NCBI RefSeq assembly: GCF_005862235.1
Contig: NZ_VCEK01000001.1
Location: 1 to 64,000, forward strand
Direction: 5' to 3'
Source: Saccharomonospora piscinae
GTDB taxonomy: Bacteria; Actinomycetota; Actinomycetes; Mycobacteriales; Pseudonocardiaceae
DNA: 64,000 nucleotides
Shown: in pieces, positions 1-41,942 of the stretch
Position numbering within the stretch: the first letter of the stretch is position 1
Layout: each line of letters begins with the position of its first letter
Notes under the pieces: generated by a model
Seen by the model: the letters and a program-made list of their open reading frames with translations, nothing else
Told to the model about the DNA's origin: nothing
Databases searched by the model: none
Translations under genes and position numbers: made by a program

Positions 1-126
1 GACTTGCGGACACGACTCCCTGACTTGCGGACACGACTCCCTGACTTGCGGACACGACTCCCTGACTTGCGGACACGACTCCCTGACTTGCGGACACGGC
101 TCCCTGACTTGCGGACACGGCTTCGA
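1..126 (-). repeat. 21-bp tandem repeat array, locus 1
   Basis: Six head-to-tail copies of a 21-bp unit fill the left edge: four identical units (1-84), then two with one A-to-G change. On the minus strand the core reads GTGTCCGCA. The array begins 10 nt after the stop codon of the EF-G-like gene (stop at 129-131) and has the same orientation as that gene. It may continue beyond the left edge. It is the most homogeneous of five such arrays in the window. Confidence 0.95.
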
Positions 127-128
127 CG

Positions 129-2243
129 TCAGGCTCGGGTCTTCTGCGGGGCGGGTTCGTAGCGGGCGTGCCGTCGCGTGAAGCTCGCCGTGCCCGACGT
201 GAGCGATCGCAGGTCGACGGCGTAGCGCACCAGCTCGCTCGCGGGCACCTCCGCGCGCACGACGCTGCTGGGGCCGGTGCCGCCCTCGCGTGATTCGGTC
301 CCGAGCACCCGGCCCCGGCGGGAGGACAGGTCGCCGAGCACCGCGCCGAGGAAAGAGTCGGGCAGCAGGACGGTCACCTCGTCGAGCGGCTCCAGCGTCA
401 CCAGCCCCGCCGCGGCGGCGGCGTCCTTCACGGCCAGCGCACCCGCGGTGGCGAACGCGGCGTCGGAAGAGTCCACGCTGTGTGCCTTGCCGTCGATCAG
501 GGTGACCCGGACGTCCACCACGGGGTCGGCCGAGCCGATGCCGTGATCGAGCTGTGCCCGGACCCCCTTCTCGACACTGGGGATGAACTGGTGGGGCACG
601 ACCCCGCCGACGATCCGGTCGGCGAACTCCACGCCGGCGCCGCGTTCCAGCGGCTCCACCGACACGTCGCACACGGCGTACTGCCCGTGCCCGCCGGACT
701 GCTTGACGTGCCGCCCGTGCCCGGTGGCCGGGCCCGCGAAGGTCGTCCGCCTGCTGACGCGCACGGGCTCGGTGGTCACGTCGGCGCCGCCCGAGCGCAG
801 CGCCGACAGCACGACGTCGGCGTGCGCCTCACCCATGCACCACAGCACGAGCTGGTGGGTGTCGGCGTTGCGTTCGAGCCGCAGGGTCGGGTCGCCCGCG
901 ACGAGCCGGGCGAGGTTGCGGGCGAGGGCGTCCTCGTCGCTGCGGGTCTGCGCGGCGACCGCCACCGGCAGGAGGGGTTCCGGCATCTCCCACGGCCGGA
1001 TGAGCAGTGGTTCGTCCGGTGCGGACACGGTGTCGCCCGTCTCGGCCGAGGTCAGTTTGGTCAGGGCGCACACGTCGCCGGCCACGCAGTGCGACACCTC
1101 CCGCAGTGCCGCGCCGAGTGGCGAGTACAGGTGGGCGACGCGCTCGTCGGCATCGTGGTCGTCGTGGCCCCGCTCGGCGAATCCGTGCCCGCTGACATGC
1201 ACGGCGCGCTCGGCCCGCAGCGTTCCGGAGAAAACCCGCACCAGCGACACCCGGCCGACGTAGGAGTCGACGGCGGTGTGGACGACCTCCGCCGCGAGCG
1301 GGCCGTCGGGGTCGGTGGCCAGGCGGGGACGGGGGACTCCCGTCGGCGACGTCGCCTCGGGCGGCGGATGTTCCAGCGGCGAGGGGAAGGCGCGGGCGAT
1401 CCCGTCGAGGATCTCGGCGGTGCCGAGGCCCGTCTCCGCGCACGCCGGGATCACCGGGTGGAACGTGCCTTTGGCCACGGCCCGCTCCAGATCGGCGATC
1501 AGGGTGTCCTCGGTGATCACCTCGCCCGCGAGGTAGCGATCGAGCAGCGTCTCGTCCTCGCTCTCGGCGATGATCCCCTCGATCAGGGTGTCGCGGGCGT
1601 CGTCGGCCCGGTCGGCCTCCGCCTCCGCCAGCGGTCCGCGCGCCGGCGGAGCCCCGGCCGAGTAGTCGTAGCGCGTGCGCGTGATGAGTCCGAGCAGCGC
1701 CGTCGGATCACCGGCCGAGGGCAGATAGAGCGGCAGGACGCCGCTGCCGAACGCCTCCTGGCACGCTGCCACGGTCGCACCGACGTCGGCACGTGCGTGG
1801 TCGAGCCGGGACACGACGACCGCGCGGGGCAGGTTCACGGCCGCGCACTCCTCCCACAGCGAGACGGTGGCGGGGTCGATGCCGTGCCCTGCGCTGACGA
1901 CGAACAGCGCGGCGTCGGCCGCACGGAGCCCGGCCCGGACCTCGCCGACGAAGTCGGCATAGCCGGGAGTGTCGACGAGGTTGATCTTGACGTCGCCGTG
2001 GACCACGGGAGCCACGGCCACGCCGACCGAGCGTTGTTGCCGGACGGCTGCGGGGTCGTGGTCGCACACGGTGGTGCCGTCGGCGACCGAGCCGGGCCGG
2101 TTCACGGCACCGGCGGTCACGAGCAGAGCCTCGGTGAGCGTGGTCTTGCCCGAGCCCGACGGTCCCACGAGTGCGACGTTGCGTACGTTGCCGGGATCGT
2201 CGACGGCGACCCCGGCCGAGTTTCTCGGGTTCCTGTCGGCCAT
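129..2243 (-). CDS. elongation factor G-like GTPase (FusA2-type)
   Basis: Translation-factor GTPase of about 704 residues, the size of EF-G. The P-loop GPSGSGKT is at about residues 27-34 and the switch II motif is DTPGYADF (canonical EF-G has DTPGH). The guanine-specificity motif reads SRLD rather than NKxD. Domains II to V follow, including the QFIPSVEKG stretch typical of domain IV. This matches the actinobacterial EF-G-like paralogues rather than the main EF-G, and no rpsL/rpsG/tuf genes are nearby. Its exact role, whether ribosome rescue or recycling, is not settled by sequence. I chose the ATG at 2243 because GGAGG lies 8 nt upstream; the longest open frame starts at 2267. A 21-bp repeat array follows its stop. 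Confidence 0.88.
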
Positions 2244-2451
2244 CGTGGCCACCTCCGACTCTCGCACACGTCGTGTCCTCCATCACACGCCCGAACGGTT
2301 CCCGGGGCAAGGCGGGCGTCGTGGTCCGCCCCGAGGGGCGGCGAAAGTGGCCTTCCGGAATACGCGGTCAATGGACACCGGTAGCGGTCCACGTCGGGCC
2401 TACGCTGGAGGTGTCCCGTTGGAGAGAACCGTGCCGTGGAAAGGCCCTGCC

Positions 2452-3366
2452 GTGTCGAACGCCCAGCCCAGCGACGTTGTCGAACCCCGGACCGGTACCG
2501 CGCGGGTCAAGCGCGGGATGGCGGAGATGCTCAAGGGCGGCGTGATCATGGATGTCGTCACCCCCGACCAGGCGAAGATCGCCGAGGACGCCGGGGCGGT
2601 CGCCGTGATGGCGCTGGAGCGGGTGCCCGCCGACATCCGCGCCCAGGGCGGGGTGGCGCGGATGAGCGACCCCGACCTGATCGACGGCATCGTGTCCGCC
2701 GTGTCGATCCCGGTCATGGCGAAGGCGCGGATCGGCCACTTCATGGAGGCGCGGGTCCTGCAGTCCCTCGGTGTGGACTACGTCGACGAGTCCGAGGTAC
2801 TCACCCCGGCCGACTACGCCAACCACATCGACAAGTGGGCCTTCACGGTGCCGTTCGTCTGTGGTGCCACGAACCTCGGCGAGGCGTTGCGCCGCATCAC
2901 CGAGGGCGCTGCCATGATCCGCTCGAAGGGTGAGGCCGGGACCGGTGACGTGTCCAACGCGACCACGCACATGCGGCAGATCCGTGCCCAGTTGCGCGGG
3001 CTCGCGGCCCTGCCGGAGGACGAGCTCTACGTCGCGGCCAAGGAGTTGCAGGCGCCGTACGAGCTGGTCAGGGAGGTCGCCGCGACGGGTTCACTGCCCG
3101 TGGTCCTGTTCACCGCGGGTGGGATCGCCACCCCGGCCGATGCGGCGATGATGATGCAGCTCGGCGCCGAGGGCGTGTTCGTCGGGTCGGGCATCTTCAA
3201 GTCGGGTGACCCCGCCCGGCGCGCCGAGGCCATCGTGAAGGCGACGACGTTCCACGACGACCCCGACGTCATCGCCAAGGTCTCGCGCGGGCTGGGTGAG
3301 GCGATGGTGGGCATCAACGTGGACGACGTGCCGGAGCCGCACCGCCTGGCCGAACGCGGCTGGTGA
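2452..3366 (+). CDS. pdxS: pyridoxal 5'-phosphate synthase lyase subunit PdxS
   Basis: Synthase subunit of the ribose-5-phosphate-dependent PLP synthase. It condenses R5P, glyceraldehyde-3-phosphate and ammonia delivered by PdxT. The protein is about 304 residues and very well conserved. Both catalytic lysines are visible, in MAKARIGHF and in RSKGEAGTG, as are the phosphate-binding segments FTAGGIATP and GVFVGSGIF. The GTG at 2452 gives the usual family N-terminus (VSNAQPS...); a GTG at 2431 with GGAG 6 nt upstream is an alternative adding 7 residues. Its partner pdxT lies about 4.8 kb downstream instead of adjacent. A strong inverted repeat at 3411-3451 follows the gene. Confidence 0.96.
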
Positions 3367-3410
3367 ACGAGGCGAGTCGCCCATCCCGCCGTATGTGACG
3401 CGCGGCATGA

Positions 3411-3451
3411 TCTCGCAGCCTGGTTACAACAGGGGTGGCCAGGCTGCGAGA
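3411..3451. terminator. stem-loop between convergent pdxS and toxin remnant
   Basis: Perfect 13-bp inverted repeat with arms 3411-3423 (TCTCGCAGCCTGG) and 3439-3451 and a 15-nt loop. It lies between the stop of pdxS and the stop of the convergent minus-strand toxin-antitoxin pair. There is no T-tract on either side, so bidirectional termination is inferred from position and stem strength. Confidence 0.6.
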
Positions 3452-3493
3452 CGCCGCTCGTCGCACAGTGAGGAAAGCTGCCCTCACCGCGGT

Positions 3494-3649
3494 CTACTTC
3501 GTCTCGTTCGGGTTGCTGGTGTGCACCTGCTCCAGGAAGACCGTGCGGCCATGGACGTAGAACCAGATGCGCGCGGTGGCGAAGCGGATCTCGTACTCGC
3601 TCTTCCTCGCCGGTCGGGGTACCAGTTCACCCTTCTTCGCGGCCGCCAC
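3494..3649 (-). pseudogene. shortened toxin of a type II TA pair (probable internal deletion)
   Basis: A 51-codon frame starting at a GTG three bases past the stop of the upstream antitoxin, hence translationally linked. Its N-terminal part (KKGELVPRPARKSEYEIRF) and C-terminal part (IWFYVHGRTVF, then SNPNETK) look like the two ends of an actinobacterial RelE-like toxin family that is normally about 130-140 residues. From memory, full-length members start with a PPRP..W..RF stretch and end with IWY..D...V.V....GHPKxT. Here the ends are joined directly, so about 80 residues including the core appear to be missing in frame. It could instead be an intact small protein. The deletion reading is inference from family memory. 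Confidence 0.5.
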
Positions 3650-3651
3650 GA

Positions 3652-4107
3652 CTACGGACGCTCCACGGTCTCGTCGTCGAGCCACTCTGCCTCGGCGCTG
3701 CGGAGCCCGGCAGCGATGGCGGTCGCCGTCTCCTTCCAGGACGTCAGCTCCGCGATCGCGAGGTGGGGCTGGTCGGTGGAGAACGAGGCGCGGGCAGCGT
3801 TCACCAGGTCCTGCGCGCAGGCTTCTCGGTCCGCCGGCGACAGCGCACGCATCCAGGGGAAGACCCTGGACATGCGCTCGGCGAACGGCCCGTTGTCGTC
3901 GAGGGTGACGGTGATGAGCTGTGCGGCGAAGTTTAGCAGCTGAGACCGGCCCTCGGCCTCGCGCTGCGACATCAGCACCAGTGACTCGTCGTCGCGCCGG
4001 GTCACCGTCACAGGGTGCTCCTCGGCCTCGGCGAAGACCTCGGCGGAGTGCTTGCTCAGATCCGAGGAGCGTCGGGTCCAGGCGGGGAGGTCTGCTGCGA
4101 TGGACAT
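3652..4107 (-). CDS. Phd/YefM-like antitoxin (prevent-host-death family)
   Basis: Predicted DNA-binding antitoxin of 151 residues from the ATG at 4107. The N-terminal part (SSDLSKHSAEVFAEAEEHP, then VTVTRRDDESLVLMS) is the Phd/YefM fold signature of a DNA-binding strand-helix unit followed by a beta strand. The C-terminal half is helical and would bind the toxin. The open frame extends to 4152, but I prefer 4107 because a palindrome at 4121-4136, the likely self-regulatory operator, lies just upstream. The toxin frame follows after 2 nt. The partner toxin looks deleted, so this may now be an orphan regulator. Downstream is the convergent pdxS. Confidence 0.72.
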   Translation of the reverse strand: MSIAADLPAWTRRSSDLSKHSAEVFAEAEEHPVTVTRRDDESLVLMSQREAEGRSQLLNFAAQLITVTLDDNGPFAERMSRVFPWMRALSPADREACAQDLVNAARASFSTDQPHLAIAELTSWKETATAIAAGLRSAEAEWLDDETVERP

Positions 4108-4120
4108 GGATCTGTAGTGT

Positions 4121-4136
4121 TCCGAACACGTTCGGA
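4121..4136. promoter_or_regulatory. palindromic operator upstream of antitoxin
   Basis: Perfect inverted repeat TCCGAAC-AC-GTTCGGA ending 13 nt before the antitoxin ATG at 4107. The position fits autorepression by the Phd-type protein. Assignment rests on position and symmetry. Confidence 0.55.
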
Positions 4137-4189
4137 AGTCCACATCGGCCACCGGAATCGCTGGTGCCCCGGCCTCCCGGCGGCGGCCG

Positions 4190-4846
4190 TCACGTGTGCA
4201 GCGGATGGGTCGGTGAGTCGCCCCCGGCTTCGCGGGCGTGGGCGAGCAGGGCGGGGTAGTCGGTGGCGATGCCCTGGAGCAGCGTCTCCACCGCCGTCTC
4301 GATGTCCCGTTCCGTGACGGGCGCGTGCCCGAACAGGATCCGGTAGTGGACGAGTGAGCCGAGCAGGTCCACCGCGAGGTCGAGGTCGACGTCGTCGCGC
4401 AGGTCGCCGCGGTCCCTGGCGGAGCGCAGCATGTGCCCGACGGCGCAGCGGGGCGGCTCGAACAGGGTGTTCAGCAGCTCCGCCCGCAGTTCGGGACGTC
4501 CGGCGCAGTCGGCCAGCAGCGAGCCGAGGACGTCGGGTGGCATCCGGCCGAAGGCCGCCACGAACACGCTGAGCCCCTCTCCGAGATCGCACAGGGTGCA
4601 GCCGGTGTCCGGCACCGTGACGTCGCCGAGCTGGCGGGCCAGGGCGGCGAGCACGAGGTGCTGCCGGGTGGGCCATCGCCGGTAGATCGACGGCTTGGTC
4701 GTTCCGGCGCGCCGGGCCACCTGTTCGAGCGTGAGGCGGCTGTAGCCGACCTCGCCAAGGACGGCGAGGGTGGCGTTGAGCAGTGCCGTGTCGAGGTGGG
4801 TGTCGCGCGGTCTGCCCGAGCCGCCGTGGCGCTGAGGGGCTTGCAT
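4190..4846 (-). CDS. TetR/AcrR family transcriptional regulator
   Basis: Regulator of 218 residues. The N-terminal TetR helix-turn-helix is clear at about residues 37-65 (VARRAGTTKPSIYRRW), after a basic lead (GSGRPRD). The C-terminal ligand-binding region resembles the TetR_C class of actinobacterial regulators. It is divergent from the MFS exporter at 4904, with a 57-nt gap containing a perfect inverted repeat (4868-4887). It therefore probably represses itself and the exporter until a substrate drug binds. The ligand cannot be told from the sequence. Confidence 0.9.
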   Translation of the reverse strand: MQAPQRHGGSGRPRDTHLDTALLNATLAVLGEVGYSRLTLEQVARRAGTTKPSIYRRWPTRQHLVLAALARQLGDVTVPDTGCTLCDLGEGLSVFVAAFGRMPPDVLGSLLADCAGRPELRAELLNTLFEPPRCAVGHMLRSARDRGDLRDDVDLDLAVDLLGSLVHYRILFGHAPVTERDIETAVETLLQGIATDYPALLAHAREAGGDSPTHPLHT

Positions 4847-4867
4847 GGAAACTCATCCTAGCTTTAG

Positions 4868-4887
4868 GTTACGAGTCGTATCGTAAC
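4868..4887. promoter_or_regulatory. probable TetR operator in the TetR/MFS divergent region
   Basis: Inverted repeat GTTACGA-N6-TCGTAAC in the 57-nt gap between the divergent TetR and MFS genes. Perfect 7-bp arms and a 20-bp span are typical of TetR-family operators. Inference from symmetry and position. Confidence 0.7.
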
Positions 4888-4903
4888 TGAAAGGCGAACG
4901 CCC

Positions 4904-6430
4904 ATGCGACCGAATCCCACGGCCGCCGGAGCACGCGAGTGGACGGCGCTGGCCGTGCTCACGCTGCCGGCCCTCCTGCTGTCCATCGACAACACCGTGC
5001 TCGTCCTCGCGCTGCCCGAGCTCAGCGCCGACCTGCGCCCGAGTCCGACCCAGCAGCTGTGGATCATGGACAGCTACGGCTTCCTCATCGCCGGATTCCT
5101 GGTCACGATGGGTGCGCTGGGCGATCGGGTCGGCAGGCGGCGGGTCCTGCTCACCGGTGCCGCGGCGTTCGGGGTGGCGTCCGTGGTGGCGGCCTACTCG
5201 GGAAGCGCGGAAATGCTCATCGCGGCGCGCATGGCGCTCGGGATCGCGGCGGCCACGCTGATGCCGTCGTCACTGGCCCTGCTCACCACCGTGTTCGTCG
5301 ACGCGAAGCAGCGTGGCCTCGCCGTCGGGGTGTTCATCGGCGGCTTCATGGCGGGTGCGGCGCTCGGTCCGCTGGTCGGGGGCGCGCTGCTGGAGTCCTT
5401 CTGGTGGGGCGCGGTCTTTCTCGTCAACGTGCCGGTGATGCTGTTGCTGCTGCTCGTCGGGCCCGCCCTGCTGCCGGAGGGGCGGGGCAGCGGGACCGGC
5501 TCGCTCGACCCCCTCAGCGTGCTGCTGTCGCTCGCCACGGTCCTCCCGGTCGTCTACGGCCTCAAGGAGCTGGCCACCGAGCCGGGCGTGCTCGCCGTGG
5601 TGGCCCTGCTCGCGGGACTGGTCACGGGCGCGGTGTTCGTGCGCAGGCAGCGGCGGCTGGCCGAACCGCTGCTGGACCTTCGCCTGCTCGAACGGCCCGC
5701 CGTGCGCGCCGTCGTCGGGCTCTCGGTGGCCGTCATGCTCGTGCAGGGCGGTGCCTACCTGCTGATGGGCCAGTTTCTCCAGCTCGTCCGGGGCCTGACG
5801 CCCTGGGAATCGGGTCTGGTCCTGGTCGCTCCCGCGCTGGCACTGGTGGCGGGTTCCCTGCTCTCTCCCGTGCTGGCGCGGCGGTGGCGTCCCGGCACGG
5901 TGCTGGCCTGCGGGCTGGCCGTGGCGGCGGCCGGGTTCGCCGGACTGGCCACGGTCGACGTCACCGGGTCGCTGACCATGACGGTCGTCGCGCTCGCCGT
6001 GGCCTTCGGCGGGATGGCGCCGGTCGGCGCGCTCGGTGCCGACCTGGTGCTCGGGTCCGCGCCGCCCTCGCGAGCCGGGGGTGCGTCGTCGGTGGTGGAG
6101 ACGGCGGGGGAGCTGGGCATCGCGCTCGGCATGGCCGCACTCGGCACCGTCTCCGCCGTGCTCTACCGGTCCGCGCTCGCCCCGTCGGAGGGCGCGGGGA
6201 CGTTGGCCGACGTGGTGGCCGATGCGGGAGCGAGCCCGGCGGCGGCGGCCCTGCTGCCCGCGGCGCGGGAGGCGTTCACCGGGGCTCTCGCCACGGTGGC
6301 CGTGGGCATCGCGGTGCTGTGTGTCGTCCTCGCGGCCGTCGTGCCGCGAGCGCTGCGCACCGTGGCTCCGGTCGGTGCCACGCCCGACACGACCGACACC
6401 GCCGACACCGCCGACGCCCGTGCCGAGTGA
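4904..6430 (+). CDS. MFS drug exporter, DHA2 (14-TM) family
   Basis: Integral membrane proton-driven exporter of 508 residues with about 14 hydrophobic segments. The first helix carries the charged motif LLSIDNTVLVLALP seen in QacA/SmvA-like exporters. Motif A after helix 2 reads GALGDRVGRRR, and motif C-like MAGAALGPLVGG is near residue 150. The C-terminus ends in a DTTDTADTADA low-complexity tail. It is divergent from a TetR gene and separated from it only by a likely operator, so substrate-induced export of a cationic drug or antiseptic is a reasonable inference. The substrate is unknown. Confidence 0.9.
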   Translation: MRPNPTAAGAREWTALAVLTLPALLLSIDNTVLVLALPELSADLRPSPTQQLWIMDSYGFLIAGFLVTMGALGDRVGRRRVLLTGAAAFGVASVVAAYSGSAEMLIAARMALGIAAATLMPSSLALLTTVFVDAKQRGLAVGVFIGGFMAGAALGPLVGGALLESFWWGAVFLVNVPVMLLLLLVGPALLPEGRGSGTGSLDPLSVLLSLATVLPVVYGLKELATEPGVLAVVALLAGLVTGAVFVRRQRRLAEPLLDLRLLERPAVRAVVGLSVAVMLVQGGAYLLMGQFLQLVRGLTPWESGLVLVAPALALVAGSLLSPVLARRWRPGTVLACGLAVAAAGFAGLATVDVTGSLTMTVVALAVAFGGMAPVGALGADLVLGSAPPSRAGGASSVVETAGELGIALGMAALGTVSAVLYRSALAPSEGAGTLADVVADAGASPAAAALLPAAREAFTGALATVAVGIAVLCVVLAAVVPRALRTVAPVGATPDTTDTADTADARAE

Positions 6431-6451
6431 TGCGGGGCGGGCTCGGGGTGC

Positions 6452-7054: not shown

Positions 7055-7057
7055 ATC

Positions 7058-7073
7058 GTTCGGCTTGACGAAC
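7058..7073. promoter_or_regulatory. XRE-cupin operator, copy 1
   Basis: GTTCG-N6-CGAAC located 3 nt upstream of the XRE start at 7054. The same 16-bp architecture recurs exactly 48 bp away at 7106-7121. Function inferred from the duplication. Confidence 0.6.
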
Positions 7074-7101
7074 ACCTGCCCGTGTGTTCAGTATAGAAGC
7101 C

Positions 7102-8153: not shown

Positions 8154-8218
8154 CGGGTGGTCTCCCTCCCGCGACCACTAGGCTTGACCAGCAGTGATCG
8201 TCGGAAGAGGTGGCGCCG

Positions 8219-8839: not shown

Positions 8840-8863
8840 ACGCGCAGGAGAGTTGGAGGAGAG

Positions 8864-9613: not shown

Positions 9614-9646
9614 GGTGGTGGGCGAAGCACGGGGGGATACGGCACA

Positions 9647-10186
9647 ATGTCGGCCGTGACTGCGGAGACCGGCCTCGACAGCGACCACGAACTCGCCTCG
9701 GACGAGGAACTCAGGGAGTGGATCGTCGCGCAGGCCGAGCAACGCGGCAACGCGGTGATCACCGTGCCCACCGACGACCACGGTGCCGGATACGCCTTCA
9801 CGGTGTGCGCCTGGGCCATGCACGGCGTCCCGGAGGCGGTGGTCGTCGGGCTCCCGGTCGAGTGGGCGACGGTGTTGCTCGACGCCTACGTCGACCGTGC
9901 GGCCACGGGGGAGCGGTTCGAGTACGGGGGCCGCTACGACGACTTCTTCGACGGTGTTCCGGTGACGTTCGAGAAGGTCGCGACGGGGCACTACCCGGAG
10001 TTCTTCGGCAGCGCGTTCCTCGTCTACCCGGAGGGCGAGTTCCCCGCGGTCCAGATCATCGTGCCGACGCCCGACGGTCACTGGCCCTGGTCCCCGGACG
10101 CACCCGAGGGGTTCCGGGCATGGCAACCGGTGCTGACGGTCAGCGGCGCGCCGGAGAGCTGGACGCCGGGCACCGACGGTCCCTGA
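9647..10186 (+). CDS. DUF4262-like domain protein
   Basis: Hypothetical acidic protein of 179 residues resembling the DUF4262 family: stretches AYTVCAW-like (GYAFTVCAWAMHGVPE), a central GERFEYGGRYDDFF segment and a C-terminal WPWSPDAPEGFRAWQPVL. No catalytic motif or membrane segment is evident and no biochemical function is known for the family. It lies between yebC and ruvC, 33 nt after yebC. Its stop is followed at once by a 21-bp repeat array. GTG at 9656 is an alternative start. Confidence 0.75.
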   Translation: MSAVTAETGLDSDHELASDEELREWIVAQAEQRGNAVITVPTDDHGAGYAFTVCAWAMHGVPEAVVVGLPVEWATVLLDAYVDRAATGERFEYGGRYDDFFDGVPVTFEKVATGHYPEFFGSAFLVYPEGEFPAVQIIVPTPDGHWPWSPDAPEGFRAWQPVLTVSGAPESWTPGTDGP

Positions 10187-10189
10187 GCC

Positions 10190-10300
10190 CGGTGTCCACA
10201 CGGGACGCCGGCCGTGTCCGCAGCCCGCGTAGCCGTGTCCGCAGTTCCCGTAGCTGTGTCCGCAGCTCACGTCGTCGTGTCCGCGTTTCCCGTCGCTCCG
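10190..10300 (+). repeat. 21-bp tandem repeat array, locus 2
   Basis: Units with core GTGTCCGCA begin at 10214, 10235, 10256 and 10277 (exactly 21 bp apart), preceded by a degenerate unit at 10192. It starts 5 nt (degenerate unit) or 27 nt (first good unit) after the stop of the DUF4262 gene and is oriented with it. The units have diverged at several positions, so this array is older or less homogenised than locus 1. It accounts for most of the 194-nt gap before ruvC. Confidence 0.9.
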
Positions 10301-19512: not shown

Positions 19513-20286
19513 ATGTACGACGGGATCGATCTCCGGGTCGACGGCGAGATCGCGACGGTGACGCTGGACCGCCCCGGCAAGATGAACGCCATCAGCCACG
19601 CCATGTGGTCGGCGGTCCCGGAACTGGTCGCGGCCGTGGACGCCGACCCGGCGGTGAAGGTCCTGCTCCTGACGGGGCAGGGCGGGCATTTCTCCGCCGG
19701 TGCCGACATCGGGGAGTTCCGCGACCTGCGGTCGACGGCCGAGGGCGCGGCGACCTACGACCGGGCGGTCACGGCGGCCGTGCGGGCGCTGACGGACCTG
19801 AGCAAGCCGAGCATCGCGATGATCCGGGGAAACTGCATCGGCGGCGGCTGCCAGTTGGCGGTGGCCTGCGACCTGCGATTCGCGGCCGAGGGAGCGCGGT
19901 TCGGCATCACTCCGGCCAAGCTCGGGATCGTCTACGACTTCACGTCGACCCGGCAGCTCGTGGCGCTGGTCGGTCCCGCCCACGCGCGGTACCTGCTGCT
20001 GTCCGCGCAGTGGGTGGACGCGGCCCGCGCCCGCGAGATGGGACTGGTCAACGAGGTCGTCGACCCCGATGCGCTGGACGAGACGACGGCCGGGTTCGCC
20101 CGCACACTCTGCTCGCGATCGCAGACGTCAGTGCGCGGGATGAACGAGATCATCGGCCGGATCCTGGCGGGCCAGCGCGAGTCGGACGCGGAGGTGGAGC
20201 GTATCCGCACCGAGGCGGTGCGCAGCGCCGACTACGCGGAGGGCGTGGCGGCCTTCCTGGACCGCCGCCCGCCGAACTTCACCTGA
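19513..20286 (+). CDS. enoyl-CoA hydratase/isomerase family protein lacking both catalytic Glu
   Basis: Crotonase-fold protein of 257 residues. The oxyanion-hole segments are present (GGHFSAGADIGEF at 58-69 and GNCIGGGC at 106-113). The two glutamates used by classical enoyl-CoA hydratases are absent: the GGGCEL position is GGGCQL (Gln114), and the usual FGxPE motif reads FGITP (Pro134). It may therefore be a crotonase with another reaction (decarboxylase, isomerase, thioesterase), or inactive. Start chosen at ATG 19513 because of the close -10 element; the frame opens at GTG 19504. A 21-bp repeat array starts 4 nt after its stop. Confidence 0.85.
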   Translation: MYDGIDLRVDGEIATVTLDRPGKMNAISHAMWSAVPELVAAVDADPAVKVLLLTGQGGHFSAGADIGEFRDLRSTAEGAATYDRAVTAAVRALTDLSKPSIAMIRGNCIGGGCQLAVACDLRFAAEGARFGITPAKLGIVYDFTSTRQLVALVGPAHARYLLLSAQWVDAARAREMGLVNEVVDPDALDETTAGFARTLCSRSQTSVRGMNEIIGRILAGQRESDAEVERIRTEAVRSADYAEGVAAFLDRRPPNFT

Positions 20287-20290: not shown

Positions 20291-20349
20291 GTGTCCGCAA
20301 GCTGGGTAGCCGTGTCCGCAGTTCGTGTCGCCGTGTCCGCAGTTCGGGA
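20291..20349 (+). repeat. 21-bp tandem repeat array, locus 3
   Basis: Three units with core GTGTCCGCA at 20291, 20312 and 20333, spaced exactly 21 bp. The first begins 4 nt after the stop of the crotonase-family gene and is oriented with it. The array ends just before the operator/promoter of the VapBC-like pair. Confidence 0.9.
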
Positions 20350-31769: not shown

Positions 31770-31817
31770 CGGCGGCACCGCGGTGACAGCGGCAACAACA
31801 CTGTCGGCGGGGCCGGT

Positions 31818-31823
31818 TACGGT
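31818..31823 (+). promoter_or_regulatory. -10 element of rarA
   Basis: TACGGT ends 6 nt before GTG 31830 with no Shine-Dalgarno, the classic spacing for a leaderless start. Confidence 0.5.
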
Positions 31824-31829
31824 CGGGGT

Positions 31830-33215: not shown

Positions 33216-33283
33216 TGGCTGACGACGCGCGGTAGCCTGACGGCCAATCCTGGTGGTCGGTGATGAAGTTCCGAGGAGGGTAT

Positions 33284-33999: not shown

Positions 34000-34128
34000 C
34001 GGACGCGGTCGACACGCCGGCCCCTGCGGGTCGCCGCGGCCACGGCCTCTTCGCCGCCCCCGTTCGCATCCATCAGGACCGGTCCGCGCGATCCCGCGAG
34101 CCCGGCCGCCTCACGCCAAGGAAGACCA

Positions 34129-36795
34129 GTGGAAACACACGAGATCAACAAGCGATTTCTCGACTTCTTCGCCCGGCACGACCACACGAGGGTGCCGAGT
34201 GCGTCACTGCTCCTGGACGACCCGACGTTGCTGTTCGTGAACGCGGGCATGGTCCAGTTCAAGCCCTACTTCGTCGGTGAGGTACCCGCTCCCTACCCAC
34301 GCGCCACCAGCGTGCAGAAGTGCGTGCGCACCGGCGACATCGACGAGGTCGGCAAGACCACCCGCCACAACACGTTCTTCCAGATGGCGGGCAACTTCTC
34401 GTTCGGCGATTACTTCAAGCACGGCGCCATCAAGCAGGCGTGGGAACTGCTCACCACGTCGCAGGACGACGGTGGCTTCGGCTTCGACCCCAGCAGGTTG
34501 TGGGCCACCGTGTACGAGCACGACGCGGAGACGGCCGCCCTGTGGCGGGAGATCGCGGGCCTGCCCTCGGACCGCATCCAGTACCGCGACGCCGAGGACA
34601 ACTACTGGGACATGGGCGTACCCGGCCCGTGCGGGCCGTGCTCCGAGATCTACTACGACCGTGGGCCCGAGTACGGCCGCGAGGGCGGTCCCGCCGTGGA
34701 CGAGGACCGCTATCTGGAGATCTGGAATCTGGTCTTCATGCAGGAACTGCGGGGCGAGCTGAGCCCGAAGAAGGGCCACGCGCCCATCGGGGAGCTGCCG
34801 CAGAAGAACATCGACACCGGCATGGGTATCGAGCGTGTCGCGTACCTGTTGCAGGGTGTCGAGAACGTCTACGAGACCGACCTCGTGCGCCCGGTGATCA
34901 ACCGCGCCGAGGAGTTCTCCGGCCGTCGCTACGGCGCCGACCACACCGACGACGTCCGCTTTCGCGTCATCGCCGACCACGCGCGGTCGGGAGTCATGCT
35001 CATCGCCGACGGCGTCACGCCCGGCAACGAGGCACGGGGCTACGTGCTGCGCCGCCTGTTGCGCCGCATCGTGCGCTCGGTGCGGCTGCTCGGTGTCCAC
35101 GAGCCGGTGTTGCCGGAATTCGCCGCCGTGGTGCGCGACGCGATGGCGCCGTCGTACCCGGAGGTCGCCCGCGACTTCGACCGCATCAGCGATGTGATGC
35201 GGCTGGAGGAGGAGACGTTCCTGGCCACCCTGACCAGTGGCTCGCGCATCTTCGACCTCGCGGCGAGTCAGACCCGGGACTCCGGTGGCACGATCCTCGC
35301 GGGCGACAAGGCCTTCCAGCTGCACGACACCTACGGCTTCCCCATCGACCTGACGCTGGAGATGGCCGCGGAGCAGGGCCTCGCGGTGGACGAGGACGGC
35401 TTCCGCACGCTCATGGAGCAGCAGCGGCAGCGCGCGAAGGCCGACGCCGCCTCCCGCAAGACCGGCCGCGGCGACCTCTCGGTGTACCGCAACCTGCTGG
35501 AGGACCACGGGGAGACCCAGTTCCTCGGCTACACGGACCTGCAGGCCGACGCCAGGGTGCTGGGCCTGCTCGTCGACGGCAAACCCGTTCCCGCCGCGGC
35601 GGAGGGCACCACCGCCGAGCTCGTACTCGACCGCACCCCCTTCTACGCGGAGGGTGGTGGGCAGATCGCCGACACGGGCGTGCTCGTGGGCGAGGGTGTC
35701 GAACTCACGGTGCTCGACGTGCAGAAGCTGGTGCCTGGCCTGTTCGTCCACCGGGTGGAGGTCGTGGCGGGCGAGGTGGGCGTGGACACCCGCCTCACGG
35801 CCTCGGTGGACGGCACGCGGCGCGCGGCCGTCGCGCGGTCGCACTCGGCCACTCACCTGGTACACGCGGCGGTGCGGGGCGCCTATGGCAACCGCGCGGC
35901 CCAGGCGGGGTCGCTCAACACGCCCGGCCGGATGCGCTTCGACTTCACCACGCCGAAGTCCGTGTCGGCCGACGTTCTCACCGAGGTCGAGGAGGAGGTC
36001 AACGACTACCTCCAGACCGATGTCGAGGTGCGGTCGTACACGACGACCAAGGACCGGGCGCTCGAACTCGGCGCGGTCGCGCTGTTCGGCGAGAAGTACG
36101 GCAACGACGTGCGGGTGGTCGACATGGGCGACTACTCGCGGGAGCTCTGCGGCGGCACCCACGTCGAGCGCATCGGCCAGCTCGGGCTGGTCAAGCTGGT
36201 CGGCGACGCCTCCGTGGGCTCCGGCGTGCATCGCGTCGAGGCCCTCGTCGGCGGCGATGCCCTGCGCCACGTGCGTAAGGAGCAGCTGCTGGTGTCACAA
36301 CTGGCCGGAACGCTGAAGGTGCCCACCGACGAGTTGCCGTCGCGCGTCGAGGACGTGCTGACCCGGCTGCGCAACGCCGAGAAGGAGATCGAGCAGCTGC
36401 GGATGCGCGAGGTGCTGGGGTCGGCGGGCACGCTGGCCGACCGCGCCACCGACGTCGGCGGGGTCGCGGTCGTGGCGGAGCGGCTCGACCAGAGCATCGA
36501 CGCGGGCTCGCTGCGTGCGCTCACCGGCGAGGTGCGCAACCGGCTGGGCACCCGCCCCGGCGTCGTGGCGTTGTTCTCCCCGTCCGGCGACGGGAAGGTG
36601 AGCTTCGTGGTCGCCACCACCGCCGCCGCCCGTGACGCCGGGCTGGCGGCGGGCAAGCTCGTGCCCGCGTTCGCCGAGTCGATCGGTGGGCGAGGTGGCG
36701 GCAAGCCCGACATGGCGCAGGGCGGCGGCAGCAGGCCCGACGGCATCGGGCAGGCCGTGGAGGCCCTCCGCTCGGCCGTCGCGGCGGCCCGGTGA
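34129..36795 (+). CDS. alaS: alanyl-tRNA synthetase
   Basis: Class II synthetase of 888 residues, full length. The catalytic core includes [27 protein letters not shown] and [19 protein letters not shown]. The editing domain has [11 protein letters not shown] with the CGGTH zinc motif, and the C-terminal C-Ala domain ends [13 protein letters not shown]. It starts at GTG 34129 ([10 protein letters not shown]), with AAGGAAG upstream. I saw no T-box or other leader in the 129 nt before it. ruvX overlaps its stop by 4 nt. Confidence 0.96.
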
Positions 36796-37286
36796 GCGAC
36801 GTTCGGCCCGACCGGCCCGGGGAGCACGACCCCGGGGCCGGTCGGCGGCTCGCCGTCGACGTCGGGTCGGTCCGGGTCGGGGTCGCGCTGAGCGATCCCG
36901 CGCCGATCCTGGCGACCCCGCTCGTTACCCTGTCGCGTGATGTCGACACCGACAGCGATCTCGGCGAGCTCGCCCGGCTCGTCGCCGAACACGATGTGGT
37001 CGAGGTGATCGTGGGACTGCCGAGGACACTGGCCGACCGTCACGGCAGCGCCGCCACCGTCGCCACCGACTACGCGGGGCGGCTGGCTGAGCGGATCGCA
37101 CCCGTCGCGGTACGGCTGGCCGACGAGCGGCTGAGCACCGTGAGCGCGAGCCGGATGCTGTCTCAGCGCGGTGTGAAGGGACGTAAGCAGCGGGCGGTCG
37201 TCGACCAGGCCGCCGCCGTGGAGATTCTGCAGGGCTGGCTGGACGCGCGTGCCGCCGCTGTCGGACGGGAGGCAGGACAGCAGTGA
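36792..37286 (+). CDS. ruvX: putative pre-16S rRNA nuclease / Holliday junction resolvase-like RuvX (YqgF)
   Basis: RNase H-fold protein of 164 residues. The active-site acids are visible in [17 protein letters not shown], the Glu of [16 protein letters not shown] and DERLSTVSA, with Asp in [10 protein letters not shown] near the end. The family processes 16S rRNA 5' ends; the resolvase role is older annotation. It overlaps alaS and mltG by 4 nt each, so alaS-ruvX-mltG-aroE are translationally coupled. Confidence 0.93.
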
Positions 37287-39103
37287 GCACACCCTTCGAC
37301 GGCGCCGACGCACAGGACCCCCGCAGGCGGCGCCCCGGACCGCCCGGGCCACGTTCCCAGCGCGGCCAGCACCCCCCTCATCCGGCGCCGGGGCAGCCCC
37401 CGCAGGGGCCGAGGCCGCAGGCCCCGCCCCCGCCGCAGGCGTCGCCCCGGCCATCCCGGCGTTCGGCGACCGGGGAGAACCCGCTCCCGCCACGCCGTGC
37501 TCCCCGCACCGCGCGGCACGCGGCGCCCGAACCGAATCTGCCGCCCCCGGCGGGCGATCAGGGCGATCTGCTCGACGACTTCGGCGGTGACCCCACCCCA
37601 CCGGCTCCACCGGCCGCACAGCCTCCCGCGCCGCCCGTGCGGCCCGGGCCACCACCGGGACGCCCCCCGCGACGCCGTCGCAGGCCCTCACCCAACGACG
37701 GGGTACCACCGGACGAGAACCCCACCGAGGTGCTGCGGCTCGACGACGACGCCTACGACGACCTCTACGACGAGGAACTGGGCTACGACGGTCGCGACGA
37801 CTACGACGACTATGACGACGACTACTACTACGACGATGACGACGACCTGCTCGACGACGCGGACGACCAGCGCGACGGCAGGCGTGTGGTGTCGGCGTCG
37901 TCGGCGGAGGACGGCGACCGGGCGGAGCCCGAGTACTTCGGCGACGACCGGGACCTCGACGACGAGGAACCGCCCCGGGGCGGCCGGGGCCGAAGGCTGC
38001 TCAAGTGGATCGCCGCCCTGCTCCTGCTCGCCGTGCTCGCGGGAGGCTCGTACTTCGGGGCCCGGGAACTGCTCGGGTTCGGCTACGAGGACTACGACGG
38101 CCCCGGTGAGGGCGATGTCATCCTGCATGTCGAGGACGGCGACGTCACCAGCGTGATCGCGCGCAAGCTCGCCGAGCTCGACGCGGTGGCCAGTGCGGAG
38201 GCGTTCCTCGCGGCCGGGGAGTCGGACCAGCGCCTGCTCAGCGTGCAGCCCGGCTACTACCAGGTCAAGAGCAAGATGTCGGGTGAGTCCGCGGTGTCGG
38301 CGCTGGTCGCCGAAGAGGCGCGGGTGGGACATCTGCAGATCAGGGCGGGCACCCAGCTCTCCGACGTCATCCAGCCCGACGACTCGGTGACCCCCGGGGT
38401 GTTCAGCCTCCTGTCGAAGGCATCCTGCGCCACGGTGAACGGCGAGAGCACCTGCGTCTCGCCGGAGGAGCTGCGCGAGACCGCCGACACGGTCGACCCC
38501 GCCGAACTCGGGCTGCCCGACTGGGCGGCACGGGACGCGGCCGAGGCCGAGGAGGGCCGGACGCTCGAAGGGCTCATCGCGCCCGGCGTCTACGACGTGC
38601 GGCCGGGCTCGGACGCCCGCGAGCTGCTGTCGCAGGTGCTGGACTCCTCCGTGACGCGGCTGGAGGCGGCGGGACTGCCGGGCGCGGCGGACGATCTGGA
38701 CTACAGCCCGTACGAGGTTCTCGTGATCGCCTCGATCATCGAGAAGGAAGCGGTGAAGGCCGACTTCGGGAAGGTCTCCAGCGTGATCGACAATCGCATG
38801 GAGATCGAGATGCCCCTGGGCATGGACTCCACGGTGAACTATCTGCTCGAACGGCCCGAACTCACCACCGACGACGAGGCCAGGGCGAACCAGGGGCCCT
38901 ACAACACCTACGAGACGATAGGTCTGCCGCCGACGCCCATCGCGTCGCCGAGCGCCGAGGCGATCGCGGCGGCACTGAAGCCCGAGGACACCGACTACGT
39001 CTACTTCGTCAAGTGCGAGAAGAACGGCCTGTCGTGCTTCAACGTGGAGTACGAGGACCATCTCGCCGACCGGGACGACGCGCGGGCTCGCGATGTCTAC
39101 TGA
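37283..39103 (+). CDS. mltG: endolytic murein transglycosylase MltG
   Basis: Membrane-anchored enzyme that cleaves nascent glycan strands, 606 residues. The first about 230 residues are cytoplasmic and disordered: a Pro/Arg-rich part to about residue 150, then an Asp/Tyr-rich run ([19 protein letters not shown]). One membrane helix is at about 236-253. The YceG domain follows, with the catalytic Glu in [10 protein letters not shown] and the end motif [16 protein letters not shown]. It is far longer than E. coli MltG (about 340 residues) because of the N-terminal extension. It overlaps aroE by 11 nt. Confidence 0.93.
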
Positions 39104-39971
39104 GGCCGGTCGCGGGACCGCACGCAGGGCGGGGCTGGCGGGGTCGCCGGTGCGGCACTCGCTGTCCCCGGTCCTGCACAACGCGGCGTACGCGGCTCTC
39201 GGCCTCAGCGGGTGGCGCTACGACACGCACGAGGTCGATGCCGATTCCCTGCCGGGTTTCGTGGCGGGACTCGGCCCGGAATGGACGGGCCTGTCGGTCA
39301 CGATGCCGGGCAAACGGGTCGCGCTGGACATCGCGGACGTGGCCACCCCGAGGGCGAGGGTGGTCGGCGCGGCCAACACGCTGACCCGCGCCGCGTCCGG
39401 GCGCTGGCACGCGGACTGCACCGACGTCGACGGTGTCGCGGACGCACTGCGGGCCGCGGGCGGTCTGCGCGCGGGGGAGGGCGGCGGCACGGCACTCGTG
39501 CTCGGCGCGGGCGGAACGGCGGCGGCCGCCGTGGCCGCGCTCGCCGAACTCGGGCTGACCGAGGTGCGGCTCGTCGTGCGGGACCCGGCGAGGGCGGGGG
39601 AGGCCGAGTCGGCCGCGCGCCGCGCCGGGCTCGCCGTGCGCGTACACCGGTGGGCGGACACCGAGCTCGGCGAGCTGGCCACCGCGGCGCGGGTGCTGGT
39701 GAGCACCGCACCACCGGAGGCCGTGGCACGGGACGCCGCCGCGCTGGCCCAGGTGCCGTGCGTACTCGACGTGATCTACCACCCGTGGCCGACGCCGCTG
39801 GCCGAGACGGCGCTGGAACGTCACGGCCGGGTGGCGACGGGCCTGGACATGCTGCTGCACCAGTCTTTCGGGCAGGTCGAGCAGTTCACCGGCCTGTCCG
39901 CACCGCGTGAGGCCATGCGCGACGCGCTGCGCGAGGCCACGGGCCACACCCTGCCGCTGCCCCTGAACTGA
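39093..39971 (+). CDS. aroE: shikimate dehydrogenase
   Basis: NADP-dependent enzyme reducing 3-dehydroshikimate to shikimate, 292 residues. The substrate-binding motif LAGSPVRHSLSPVLHNAAY, the catalytic Lys in SVTMPGKR, the adjacent GAANTL and the nucleotide-binding GAGGTAAAAVAAL are present. It is the last gene of the alaS-ruvX-mltG-aroE unit. Its stop is followed after 8 nt by a 21-bp repeat array, and the expected next gene, a prepilin peptidase, lies 7.3 kb further on. Confidence 0.94.
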   Translation: MSTEAGRGTARRAGLAGSPVRHSLSPVLHNAAYAALGLSGWRYDTHEVDADSLPGFVAGLGPEWTGLSVTMPGKRVALDIADVATPRARVVGAANTLTRAASGRWHADCTDVDGVADALRAAGGLRAGEGGGTALVLGAGGTAAAAVAALAELGLTEVRLVVRDPARAGEAESAARRAGLAVRVHRWADTELGELATAARVLVSTAPPEAVARDAAALAQVPCVLDVIYHPWPTPLAETALERHGRVATGLDMLLHQSFGQVEQFTGLSAPREAMRDALREATGHTLPLPLN

Positions 39972-39979
39972 GCGCCGCC

Positions 39980-40056
39980 GTGTCCGCAGGTTGTGTAGCC
40001 GTGTCCGCAGTTCGCGTAGCCGTGTCCGCGGGTTGTGTAGCCGTGTCCGCAGCGCG
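39980..40056 (+). repeat. 21-bp tandem repeat array, locus 4
   Basis: Four units with core GTGTCCGC at 39980, 40001, 40022 and 40043, spaced exactly 21 bp. The first begins 8 nt after the aroE stop and is oriented with aroE. The last unit runs into the promoter of the next gene. Confidence 0.92.
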
Positions 40057-40063
40057 CGCACGC

Positions 40064-40069
40064 TAGCGT
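40064..40069 (+). promoter_or_regulatory. -10 element of the hydroxyacid dehydrogenase
   Basis: TAGCGT, inside the 10-bp palindrome ACGCTAGCGT (40060-40069), ends 6 nt before ATG 40076 with no Shine-Dalgarno: a leaderless-type start. Confidence 0.5.
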
Positions 40070-40075
40070 GGGCCC

Positions 40076-41020
40076 ATGCGGATCGCGATCCTCGACGACT
40101 ACCAGAACGTCGCCCTCGAACTGGCCGACTGGGCCTCCCTGAACGCCGACATCCAGGTGTTCACCGAACACATCGCCGACCACGACGAACTGGTCCCGCG
40201 CCTCGCCGGGTTCGACGTCGTCGTCGCCATGCGCGAGCGCACGCCGTTTCCCGCGTCACTGCTCGCGCGCCTGCCGGACCTCCGGCTGCTCGTCACGACC
40301 GGGCAGCGCAACGCCGCCATCGACCTCGACGCGGCGCGCGAGCACGACGTGGTGGTGTGCGGGACGGGCTACCTGCCGCATCCGACCGTGGAGCTGACGT
40401 GGGCGCTGATCCTCGCCGCACACCGGCGGCTGCCCGTGGAACTGGCGGCGATGCGGGACGGCGGGTGGCAGACGACGCTCGGGACCAGCCTGCGGGGCGC
40501 GACTCTCGGTGTGCTCGGCCTGGGACGGCTCGGGTCGCAGGTCGCCCGCGTGGGCCAGGCGTTCGGGATGCGAACCGTGGCGTGGAGCCGGAACCTCACG
40601 GCGCAGCGGGCCGCGGAACACGACGTCACGGCGGTGTCGAAGGACGAGCTGCTCGCCACCTCCGACGTGCTGACGGTGCACCTCGTGCTCAGCGATCGCA
40701 CCCGTGGCCTGCTCGGGGCCGCCGAGCTGGCGGCGATGAAGGACACGGCGCTGCTGGTCAACACCTCACGGGGACCCATCGTGGACACGGCGGCGCTGAT
40801 CGACGCGCTGCGCGGCGGGATCATCGGGGCGGCGGCCCTGGACGTCTACGACGAGGAGCCGCTGCCGGCCGACCACCCGCTGAGGACCCTGCCGAACGCG
40901 GTCCTGACCCCGCACATCGGGTTCGTCACCCGTGATGTGTACGAGGTGTTCTACCGGGACGCCGTGGCCGACATCGCCGCTTTCCAGGCGGGAGCGCCGG
41001 TGCGGGTGCTGACGTCCTGA
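40076..41020 (+). CDS. D-2-hydroxyacid dehydrogenase family protein
   Basis: NAD-dependent 2-hydroxyacid dehydrogenase-like protein of 314 residues. The nucleotide-binding motif GVLGLGRLGSQVA is at about 146-158. The catalytic Arg lies in NTSRGPIVDTAAL, Glu in YDEEPLPADHPL, and His in LTPHIGF. A 2-ketoacid or phosphoglycerate-like substrate cannot be specified. It starts without a leader just after a 21-bp repeat array and begins the accessory block between aroE and the prepilin peptidase. Confidence 0.88.
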   Translation: MRIAILDDYQNVALELADWASLNADIQVFTEHIADHDELVPRLAGFDVVVAMRERTPFPASLLARLPDLRLLVTTGQRNAAIDLDAAREHDVVVCGTGYLPHPTVELTWALILAAHRRLPVELAAMRDGGWQTTLGTSLRGATLGVLGLGRLGSQVARVGQAFGMRTVAWSRNLTAQRAAEHDVTAVSKDELLATSDVLTVHLVLSDRTRGLLGAAELAAMKDTALLVNTSRGPIVDTAALIDALRGGIIGAAALDVYDEEPLPADHPLRTLPNAVLTPHIGFVTRDVYEVFYRDAVADIAAFQAGAPVRVLTS

Positions 41021-41025
41021 GCCGC

Positions 41026-41838
41026 TCAGCCGAGTTCGGCCAGGACGGCGTCGGTGAACTCCGGCCATGCCTGCGCGGCCCACGGGCCGAAGTCGCGGTC
41101 GGTCAGCGCCACGCAGCTCACGCCTGCCTCGGGATCGACCCAGAGGAAGGTTCCAGACTGTCCGAAGTGGCCGAACGTGCGGGGCGAGCTGCGCTTACCC
41201 GTCCAGTGCGGATCCTTGTGGTCGCGCAGCTCGAAGCCGAGCCCCCAGTCGTTCGGCTTCTGGTGGCCGAACCCGGGCAGCACGCCGCTCATACCGGGAA
41301 ACGCCACGGTCGTGGCCTCGTCGAGCGTCGTCTGGTGAAGCAACGTCGGGCGCTGCAACTCGGCGGCGAACCGGACCAGATCGTTCACAGTGGACTCCGC
41401 ACCCGCGCCGACGGAGCCATTGAGCACGGTGTCACGCAGCCCGAGCGGTTGCAGCAGCGCCTCCCGCTGGTAGCGCTCGAACGCGATCCCGGTGTGCTCG
41501 CTGACCGCGTCGGCAAGCTGCTCGAAACCGGCGGTGGAGTAGAGCCTGCGCTGTCCGGGTGGGGCGAGCACGCGGTGTTCGTTGAAGCCGAGCCCGGCGG
41601 TGTGAGCCAGCAGGTGGCGAACGGTGGCGCCCTCGGGGCCGGCGGGCTGGTCGAGTTCGACCGCGCCCTCCTCGACGGCGATGAGCGTGGTGTAGGCGGT
41701 GAGCAGCTTGGTGACCGAGGCGAGCGGGAACGCCCGCGCCCGGTCGCCGTGAGCGCCGAGCAGGGTGCCGTCGGCCCGGACCACCGCCACGGCGGCGTTG
41801 TCGACGGGCCACTGGTCGATCAGGCGCACGCTGTCCAT
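41026..41838 (-). CDS. serine hydrolase of the beta-lactamase (class C/PBP4-like) family
   Basis: Penicillin-binding-fold hydrolase of 270 residues. The active-site SxxK is SVTK at about residues 42-45, the second motif Tyr is in LYSTAGFEQL, and the third motif region is near KRSSPRTFGHFGQSG. There is no signal peptide, so it is probably cytoplasmic and acts on small esters or amides; resistance is not implied. It is convergent with the dehydrogenase (5 nt between the stops). Upstream of its start, on the same strand, is a 21-bp repeat array. Confidence 0.85.
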   Translation of the reverse strand: MDSVRLIDQWPVDNAAVAVVRADGTLLGAHGDRARAFPLASVTKLLTAYTTLIAVEEGAVELDQPAGPEGATVRHLLAHTAGLGFNEHRVLAPPGQRRLYSTAGFEQLADAVSEHTGIAFERYQREALLQPLGLRDTVLNGSVGAGAESTVNDLVRFAAELQRPTLLHQTTLDEATTVAFPGMSGVLPGFGHQKPNDWGLGFELRDHKDPHWTGKRSSPRTFGHFGQSGTFLWVDPEAGVSCVALTDRDFGPWAAQAWPEFTDAVLAELG

Positions 41839-41865
41839 GCCCTCACTCTAACGCCGCCCGCGACG

Positions 41866-41942
41866 CGGCCTGCGGACACGGCGACGCGGGCTGCAGACAC
41901 TGCTACGCAGGCTGCGGACACGGCTACGCGGGCTGCGGACAC
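41866..41942 (-). repeat. 21-bp tandem repeat array, locus 5
   Basis: Four units; on the minus strand the core GTGTCCGCA begins at 41942, 41921, 41900 (as GTGTCTGCA) and 41879, exactly 21 bp apart. It starts 4 nt after the stop of the minus-strand alpha/beta hydrolase (stop 41949-41947) and follows its orientation, ending about 30 nt before the serine hydrolase start. Confidence 0.92.

What the first reader, a model, noticed from the sequence alone, without database searches (positions are those of the whole stretch)
1..41942. A dispersed family of exactly 21-bp tandem repeats placed directly after stop codons
Five arrays (1-126, 10190-10300, 20291-20349, 39980-40056, 41866-41942) share the core GTGTCCGCA and an exact 21-bp period, with 3 to 6 units each. 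Every array starts 4-10 nt past the stop codon of a protein gene and points the same way as that gene: three after plus-strand genes, two after minus-strand genes. Five out of five is unlikely by chance and suggests a transcribed 3' UTR element, such as an RNA-processing, protein-binding or mRNA-end signal, or a repeat that only tolerates insertion at gene ends. I know of no named element matching it; mycobacterial MIRU repeats are only a loose analogue.
Basis: seen in the sequence. Interest (0 to 1): 0.85.

Follow-up and report, generated by a model that had tools for sequence, protein, structure and literature searches.

The report
Intergenic 21-bp repeat arrays with dialects
In a soil actinomycete and some of its relatives, short arrays of an exactly 21-base repeat sit between genes, often right after a stop codon, and related lineages use different 'words' for the same repeat, which suggests an unknown DNA-reading factor at gene ends.

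Summary
All five arrays are real. The own genome (Saccharomonospora, inferred) holds 321 exact adjacent pairs, none with the pattern read backwards. A motif-blind test finds self-match at lag 21 in 64 of 912 gaps, against 0, 1, 0 and 1 at lags 19, 20, 22, 23.

The five-of-five rule fails. On the whole 1.14-Mb contig, 23 of 40 arrays lie within 12 nt after a stop in sense (shuffle mean 1.1, largest 5). Six of 15 in codirectional gaps are antisense; 8 lie in divergent gaps. By gap count the preference is for convergent genes (26 of 114, against 28 of 528 codirectional and 10 of 270 divergent).

New: facing arms keep a phase, some positions recur at orthologues, and the word differs by lineage (GTGTCCGCA, GTGTCAGCA, GTGTCCGCG, GAGTCGAC) while the 21-bp period and, in the two dialects tested, a pyrimidine-purine step at 13/14 stay. 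Single arrays have no RNA fold; facing pairs do.

Best reading: DNA sites two helical turns apart for an unidentified oligomeric protein, working like REP/BIME elements. No partner was found.

The parts
5..118 (-). Array 1: six units, all with the exact core; 10 nt after the stop of the minus-strand gene 129-2267; cut by the contig start, so it may be longer
10192..10285 (+). Array 2: five units (three exact cores; the first, GTGTCCACA, is 22 bp from the next); 5 nt after the stop of the gene ending at 10186
20291..20341 (+). Array 3: three exact units, 4 nt after the stop of the gene ending at 20286; the orthologous end has arrays in G069, G061 and G062 and a partial one in G067, none in G024 and G068
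39980..40051 (+). Array 4: four units (three exact), 8 nt after the stop of the gene 39093-39971; absent at the orthologous end in the four genomes where it was read
41871..41942 (-). Array 5: four units (three exact, one GTGTCTGCA), 4 nt after the stop of the minus-strand gene that ends at 41947; arrays at the orthologous end in G069, G062 and G024, only a degenerate trace in G061
1020..1028 (-). Lone exact core inside the gene 129-2267; about what chance gives

Best explanation
The arrays are double-stranded DNA sites for an oligomeric, sequence-specific protein that has not been identified. Each 21-bp unit puts one site exactly two helical turns from the next, so that subunits can stack head to tail on one face of the DNA. 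Two arrays can also face each other across a near-palindromic centre in a fixed phase. Bound arrays at gene ends, above all between convergent genes, most likely act like REP/BIME elements: they mark or insulate the boundary between transcription units, by blocking read-through or by anchoring a protein that manages supercoils or the nucleoid. Lineages use different recognition words on the same scaffold, so sites and reader seem to change together across the genome. Shown here: period, phase, placement bias, recurrence at some orthologous ends, dialects, the shared pyrimidine-purine step in two dialects, no RNA fold in single arrays. Inferred: the protein, its oligomerisation, its effect on transcription.
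For: Motif-blind lag-21 signal in 64 of 912 gaps, 0-1 at neighbouring lags. In 100 inner units position 16 is always G, position 12 always C or T, and 79 have a pyrimidine-purine step at 13/14; in the GAGTCGAC dialect 61 of 74 units keep that step in the same register. In the own contig 45 of 46 listed facing core pairs have a gap of 8 modulo 21. Convergent gaps are enriched over divergent ones, p 3e-8. Shared positions among 204 orthologue triples are 3, 2 and 4 against 0.15, 0.17 and 0.21 expected. Single arrays have no fold. GTGTCCGCA is replaced by GAGTCGAC in three of four genomes of the sister clade at the same period.
Against: No reader protein was found or searched for beyond one transposase family. 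Facing pairs fold strongly as RNA (median z -6.5), so a bidirectional terminator is possible at those. Codirectional gaps are not enriched over divergent ones (p 0.38), and orientation bias is weak (21 to 10, p 0.07). G061 and G062 use a second facing phase, 17 modulo 21, about as often, and the exact centre is missing there. Variation at positions 12-14 is mostly C-T and A-G, so the pyrimidine-purine pattern may partly reflect mutation. Orthologue numbers are small, and at nine of ten listed gene ends at least one species lacks a near array.
Confidence: 0.45

Rival explanations
1. A self-spreading or drive-maintained repeat without host function. Units multiply by slippage, spread between loci by gene conversion or an unknown mobilising enzyme, and survive where they do least harm, next to stop codons and between convergent genes. 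Homogenisation inside each genome makes the dialects.
For: Patchy presence of the word: G168 has 191 two-mismatch pairs while six others of its genus have 2-6, and 98 kb of its neighbour G123 show no lag-21 3' flank in 40. Some arrays have near-identical units. In 4 of 41 arrays a TAG of the repeat is the called stop of the upstream gene. Arrays follow the remains of decayed genes near 412-413 kb of C3 (by eye).
Against: Cores stay constant while linkers vary, and some positions recur between species with 82-91% median protein identity. The exact period and facing phase are kept. No match to the element in plasmids or phages.
Confidence: 0.35
2. A transcribed 3' UTR element: the sense arrays are read as RNA by a protein or small RNA, and facing arrays act as bidirectional terminators.
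For: 23 of 40 arrays lie within 12 nt after a stop in sense; the 8 paired clusters fold with median z -6.5.
Against: Six antisense arrays in codirectional gaps and eight arrays in divergent gaps of C3; single arrays do not fold; the arms' variable parts do not match.
Confidence: 0.13
3. Signals for taking up or sorting own DNA, in the manner of Neisseria uptake sequences.
For: Hundreds of copies, lineage dialects, and inverted pairs in intergenic space, all three described for Neisseria uptake sequences (PMC3630211, passages).
Against: Uptake sequences are single words, here arrays at exact two-turn spacing. I know of no ComP-like receptor in these bacteria (recalled, not tested).
Confidence: 0.05

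Closest known systems
REP / BIME repetitive extragenic palindromes (GTAG- and CGTC-tagged families; PMC3733652, passages seen)
   Same: High copy number, intergenic, mostly between convergent and unidirectional genes, some dispersed in facing pairs, and a repeat TAG that serves as the stop codon of the neighbouring gene.
   Different: The unit is not a palindrome, single arrays do not fold, the period is fixed at 21 bp, and 10 of 15 array-rich genomes tested have no Y1 transposase.
Neisseria DNA uptake sequences and their dialects (PMC3630211, passages seen)
   Same: A short word in hundreds of copies that differs between related lineages; inverted pairs between genes.
   Different: Tandem arrays with exact spacing and a longer patterned unit; no uptake receptor known to me in this group.
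Plasmid iterons (recalled)
   Same: Direct repeats of about two helical turns that let a protein bind in series.
   Different: Here dispersed over the chromosome in 32 clusters on one contig, not at one origin.
Mycobacterial MIRU repeats
   Same: Tandem, intergenic, in an actinomycete.
   Different: Unit length, sequence and the fixed 21-bp period differ; no relation was tested.

Membership tests
REP / BIME | Each unit is a palindrome that folds into a stem-loop | tested here: not met
   25 single arrays: median z -0.68; only facing pairs fold
REP / BIME | REP-associated Y1 transposase (RAYT) in the genome | tested here: not met
   PF01797 in 6 of 20 genomes; in 5 of the 15 array-rich ones (the own genome, G060, G067, G065, G028), absent from 10 of 15
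REP / BIME | Many copies between convergent or unidirectional genes | tested here: met
   lag-21 gaps: 26 of 114 convergent, 28 of 528 codirectional, 10 of 270 divergent
REP / BIME | Bound by gyrase or another nucleoid protein | not testable with these tools
   needs a binding experiment
Neisseria-type uptake sequence | Short word with lineage dialects | tested here: met
Neisseria-type uptake sequence | Single, unspaced words | tested here: not met
   units at exact 21-bp period in arrays
Neisseria-type uptake sequence | ComP receptor and uptake preference | not tested
   no search made
CRISPR array | Constant repeats of 24-48 bp with unique spacers (size as given in PMC3733652, passage) | tested here: not met
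   9-bp core with patterned 12-bp linkers; 41 arrays on one contig
Plasmid iteron | Direct repeats of about two helical turns | tested here: met
   21 bp
Plasmid iteron | Clustered at a replication origin and bound by its initiator | tested here: not met
   dispersed, 32 clusters on 1.14 Mb; binding not testable
Known RNA family (Rfam 15) | Covariance-model match at gathering score | tested here: not met
   0 matches in window, L067 and L038
MIRU | Mycobacterial repeat sequence and length | not tested
   resemblance by recall only

The most novel reading that the evidence does not exclude
Some Pseudonocardiaceae carry a boundary code: arrays of 21-bp iterons at gene ends, read by a dedicated DNA-binding factor whose recognition word changes between lineages, with all sites in the genome following. 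This would be a chromosome-wide counterpart of plasmid iterons and a new class of gene-end element.
Probability: 0.35. Interest if true: 0.85.

Novelty: new variant of a known kind. Interest (0 to 1): 0.65.

Why it matters
How actinomycetes separate neighbouring transcription units is largely open (background knowledge). It is also a bacterial case of sites at over a hundred places changing together, which calls either for a co-evolving protein or for molecular drive, and the two can now be told apart by experiment.

Tried and rejected
The strict 'always after a stop, always sense' rule: rejected by the whole contig. RNA hairpin as the common function: rejected for single arrays. REP with RAYT: see membership. 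tRNA genes as hidden neighbours: in eight 20-kb stretches only one tRNA, a selenocysteine tRNA in L060 away from the arrays. Phage or plasmid origin: two exact pattern matches in viral contigs, with no called gene beside them and not followed; one two-armed element has no match in the plasmid and phage collections. Simple absence in the sister clade: wrong for three of four genomes, which have another word; for G066 neither word was found. Recurrence at the one GAGTCGAC array held: the three orthologues in the main clade have no array there. Matches in seven other named genomes of the capped list (one stretch each) have other linkers or lie in other settings and were set aside by eye; a Sandaracinus MAG is reported under things noticed. 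Print: nine listings. Searches found no paper, four on other subjects, one search listed 20 of 169 without a bacterial repeat among them; no listed title describes this repeat. One paper search was left unused.
Full report
OBSERVATION. Tandem Repeats Finder finds the five arrays with period 21. GTGTCCGCA occurs 19 times in the window against 1.56 expected; 18 of the 19 are in arrays. Sequences and neighbouring stops were read; my scan gives stop-to-core distances of 10, 5, 4, 8 and 4 nt.

ORGANISM AND COUNT. The window is the start of contig C3 of an unnamed 4.9-Mb genome. The own genome has 321 adjacent exact pairs and none of the control pattern. C3 was read whole: 41 arrays of 2 to 10 units in 32 clusters. 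Genes were called by a home-made script and are approximate; it missed at least one small frame.

PLACEMENT. One search placed 40 of the 41 arrays; the one left out is the window's first, before the first called gene. Upstream in array orientation, 26 of 40 meet a same-strand gene end and 23 of 40 meet it within 12 nt. Random placement gives 1.1 on average and at most 5 in 2000 trials; random placement in the same gap gives 4.45 and at most 11. The orientation count alone (26) is no more than the same-gap control (24.5), because every array in a convergent gap counts as sense. In codirectional gaps the own contig has 9 sense and 6 antisense; with G061 (3:2), G062 (3:2), G168 (5:0) and G063 (1:0) it is 21:10, p 0.07. 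In 34 loci of DX1.bin91 and 5 of NB11 the codirectional counts are 9:5 and 1:3, and 11 of 29 and 1 of 6 arrays with genes on both sides lie within 12 nt of a stop in sense (14 and 1 arrays without a gene on one side dropped). Antisense arrays of C3 sit 15-46 nt from the stop to the nearest core; since a 12-nt linker lies on that side, two of the six also nearly abut the stop, so the contrast in distance is weaker than it looks. Eight arrays lie in five divergent gaps. Proteins beside ten of the eleven exception gaps were checked: 18 of 20 have a Pfam domain. In 3 of 41 arrays the TAG of a unit is the called stop of the upstream gene, and in a fourth the stop is the TAG of a degenerate unit just before the array.

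MOTIF-BLIND TEST. Without using any word, gaps of 60-600 bp in six genomes with arrays were scanned for self-match. Lag 21 appears in 64 of 912 gaps; lags 19, 20, 22 and 23 in 0, 1, 0 and 1. By type: convergent 26 of 114, codirectional 28 of 528, divergent 10 of 270; convergent against divergent p 3e-8, codirectional against divergent p 0.38. In 3' flanks the lag-21 share is 9% of 150 in the first 400 kb of C3, 18% of 130 in G168, 17% of 47 in G009, 15% of 40 in G069, 8% of 123 in G062, 4.5% of 112 in G061, 3% of 36 in G024, but 0 of 13 in the short G020 sample. In genomes poor in the word it is 0 of 40 (G123), 1 of 33 (G154), 0 of 25 (G036), 0 of 11 (G026) and 1 of 12 (G063). By accident a period-22 version of a three-unit pattern was run over 397 genomes of the order, the own included, with no match.

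ANATOMY. In 100 inner units of C3 the core is near constant partly because the search used it, but position 16 is always G, position 12 always C or T, and 79 have a pyrimidine-purine step at 13/14. Positions 17-21 are TAGCC in the own genome and YACGC in G061 and G062 (11 and 22 units). Facing cores in the own contig are 8, 29 or 50 bases apart in 45 of 46 listed pairs, that is 8 modulo 21; one is at 42. In G061 and G062 there is a second phase, 17 modulo 21: 5 and 3 pairs in the first phase, 4 and 6 in the second, one elsewhere. The exact centre occurs 15 times in the own genome, once in G024, not in G061 or G062.

RELATIVES. The exact pair is in 8 of 12 genomes of the genus. With up to 2 mismatches it has 188-435 matches in these eight, 191 in G168, 154 in G009, 129 and 44 in G020 and G058, 44 in G028, and 0-11 in the rest of 249 family genomes, where the backward control reaches 6. 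G168 mostly uses GTGTCAGCA, G028 and G009 mostly GTGTCCGCG (listed matches; G009 only six). Four MAGs of the same genus (G063-G066) seemed empty. A motif-blind look at G063 found one array after a stop with GAGTCGAC; that word at period 21, with up to one mismatch, has 112, 132 and 104 matches in G063, G064 and G065, 0 in G066, 0 in G036, 2 in G154 and 1 in the own genome. Its units have C or T at position 12 in 93% and the pyrimidine-purine step at 13/14 in 61 of 74. In a class sample, 7 of the 196 other genomes have 1-2 three-unit matches. On an alanyl-tRNA synthetase tree of 30 genomes the array-rich ones are scattered; the row of G168 rests on 44% of the columns, and absence of one word is not absence of the element. 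G151 carries 9 of its 11 matches within 20 kb, among genes for a hydroxylase, a desaturase-reductase and regulators; G073, almost identical in that protein, has 3 matches. This looks like a transferred block that brought its arrays along (inference).

POSITIONAL RECURRENCE. Among 204 orthologue triples of the own genome, G061 and G062 (median protein identity 82-91%), 5, 6 and 7 genes have an array within 45 nt after the stop. Shared counts are 3, 2 and 4 against 0.15, 0.17 and 0.21 expected (p 1e-4, 0.01, 7e-6). Numbers are small and neighbours are not independent. At one end all three have one within 45 nt; at the other nine listed ends at least one species lacks a near one.

MECHANISM. Exact two-turn spacing, phase kept across the dyad, a constrained flexible step shared by two dialects, and no fold in single arrays speak for sites in double-stranded DNA for a protein that stacks on one face. 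Placement near gene ends and between convergent genes suggests a boundary role like REP/BIME. Protein, oligomer and effect are inferred; no candidate was found. The drive or mobile rival explains patchiness and turnover better and stays close behind.

LITERATURE. Seen: passages of PMC3733652 and PMC3630211; other papers only as listings with the start of the abstract. No listing described this repeat; the library holds open-licence papers only, so this is weak evidence of novelty.

Noticed in passing
window 1; G000:C4:3-116: Contig C3 begins and contig C4 begins inside an array of near-identical units, so arrays probably break the assembly and the longest ones are under-counted.
   Followed up: no
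L089, L099, L114, L121, L123, L124, L127 (Sandaracinus MAG NAT131): Seven stretches of a myxobacterial MAG hold three or more GTGTCCGCA units at period 21 with other linkers, six of them within about 110 bases of a contig end; no clear stop-codon link with my caller, which was not trained for it. A relative or an independent repeat.
   Followed up: partly
L155, L156 (G151:C1:6280001-6320000): Island with five arrays in a genome otherwise nearly free of them, among catabolic genes; looks like a block gained from an array-bearing relative.
   Followed up: partly
G000:C3:412262-413097 and 959990-960490: Remains of decayed genes (by eye a MerR-like and an aldo/keto reductase-like piece) lie between arrays, so arrays outlive their genes. 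Described by eye only.
   Followed up: no
G154 stretch L230-L233 near 54.1 kb; G036 stretch L221-L224 near 70 kb: Single period-21 arrays with yet other words (GTGTTG-type; TGGAAC-type) in convergent gaps: possible further dialects.
   Followed up: partly
window about 20383 onward: An ATG soon after array 3 opens a small frame that my gene caller missed; by eye it resembles a short antitoxin. Untested.
   Followed up: no
L195, L196 (viral contigs): Two viral contigs each hold one short period-21 array with the exact core; no called genes beside it.
   Followed up: no
L060:14867-14960: A selenocysteine tRNA gene, near C3 position 594.9 kb.
   Followed up: no
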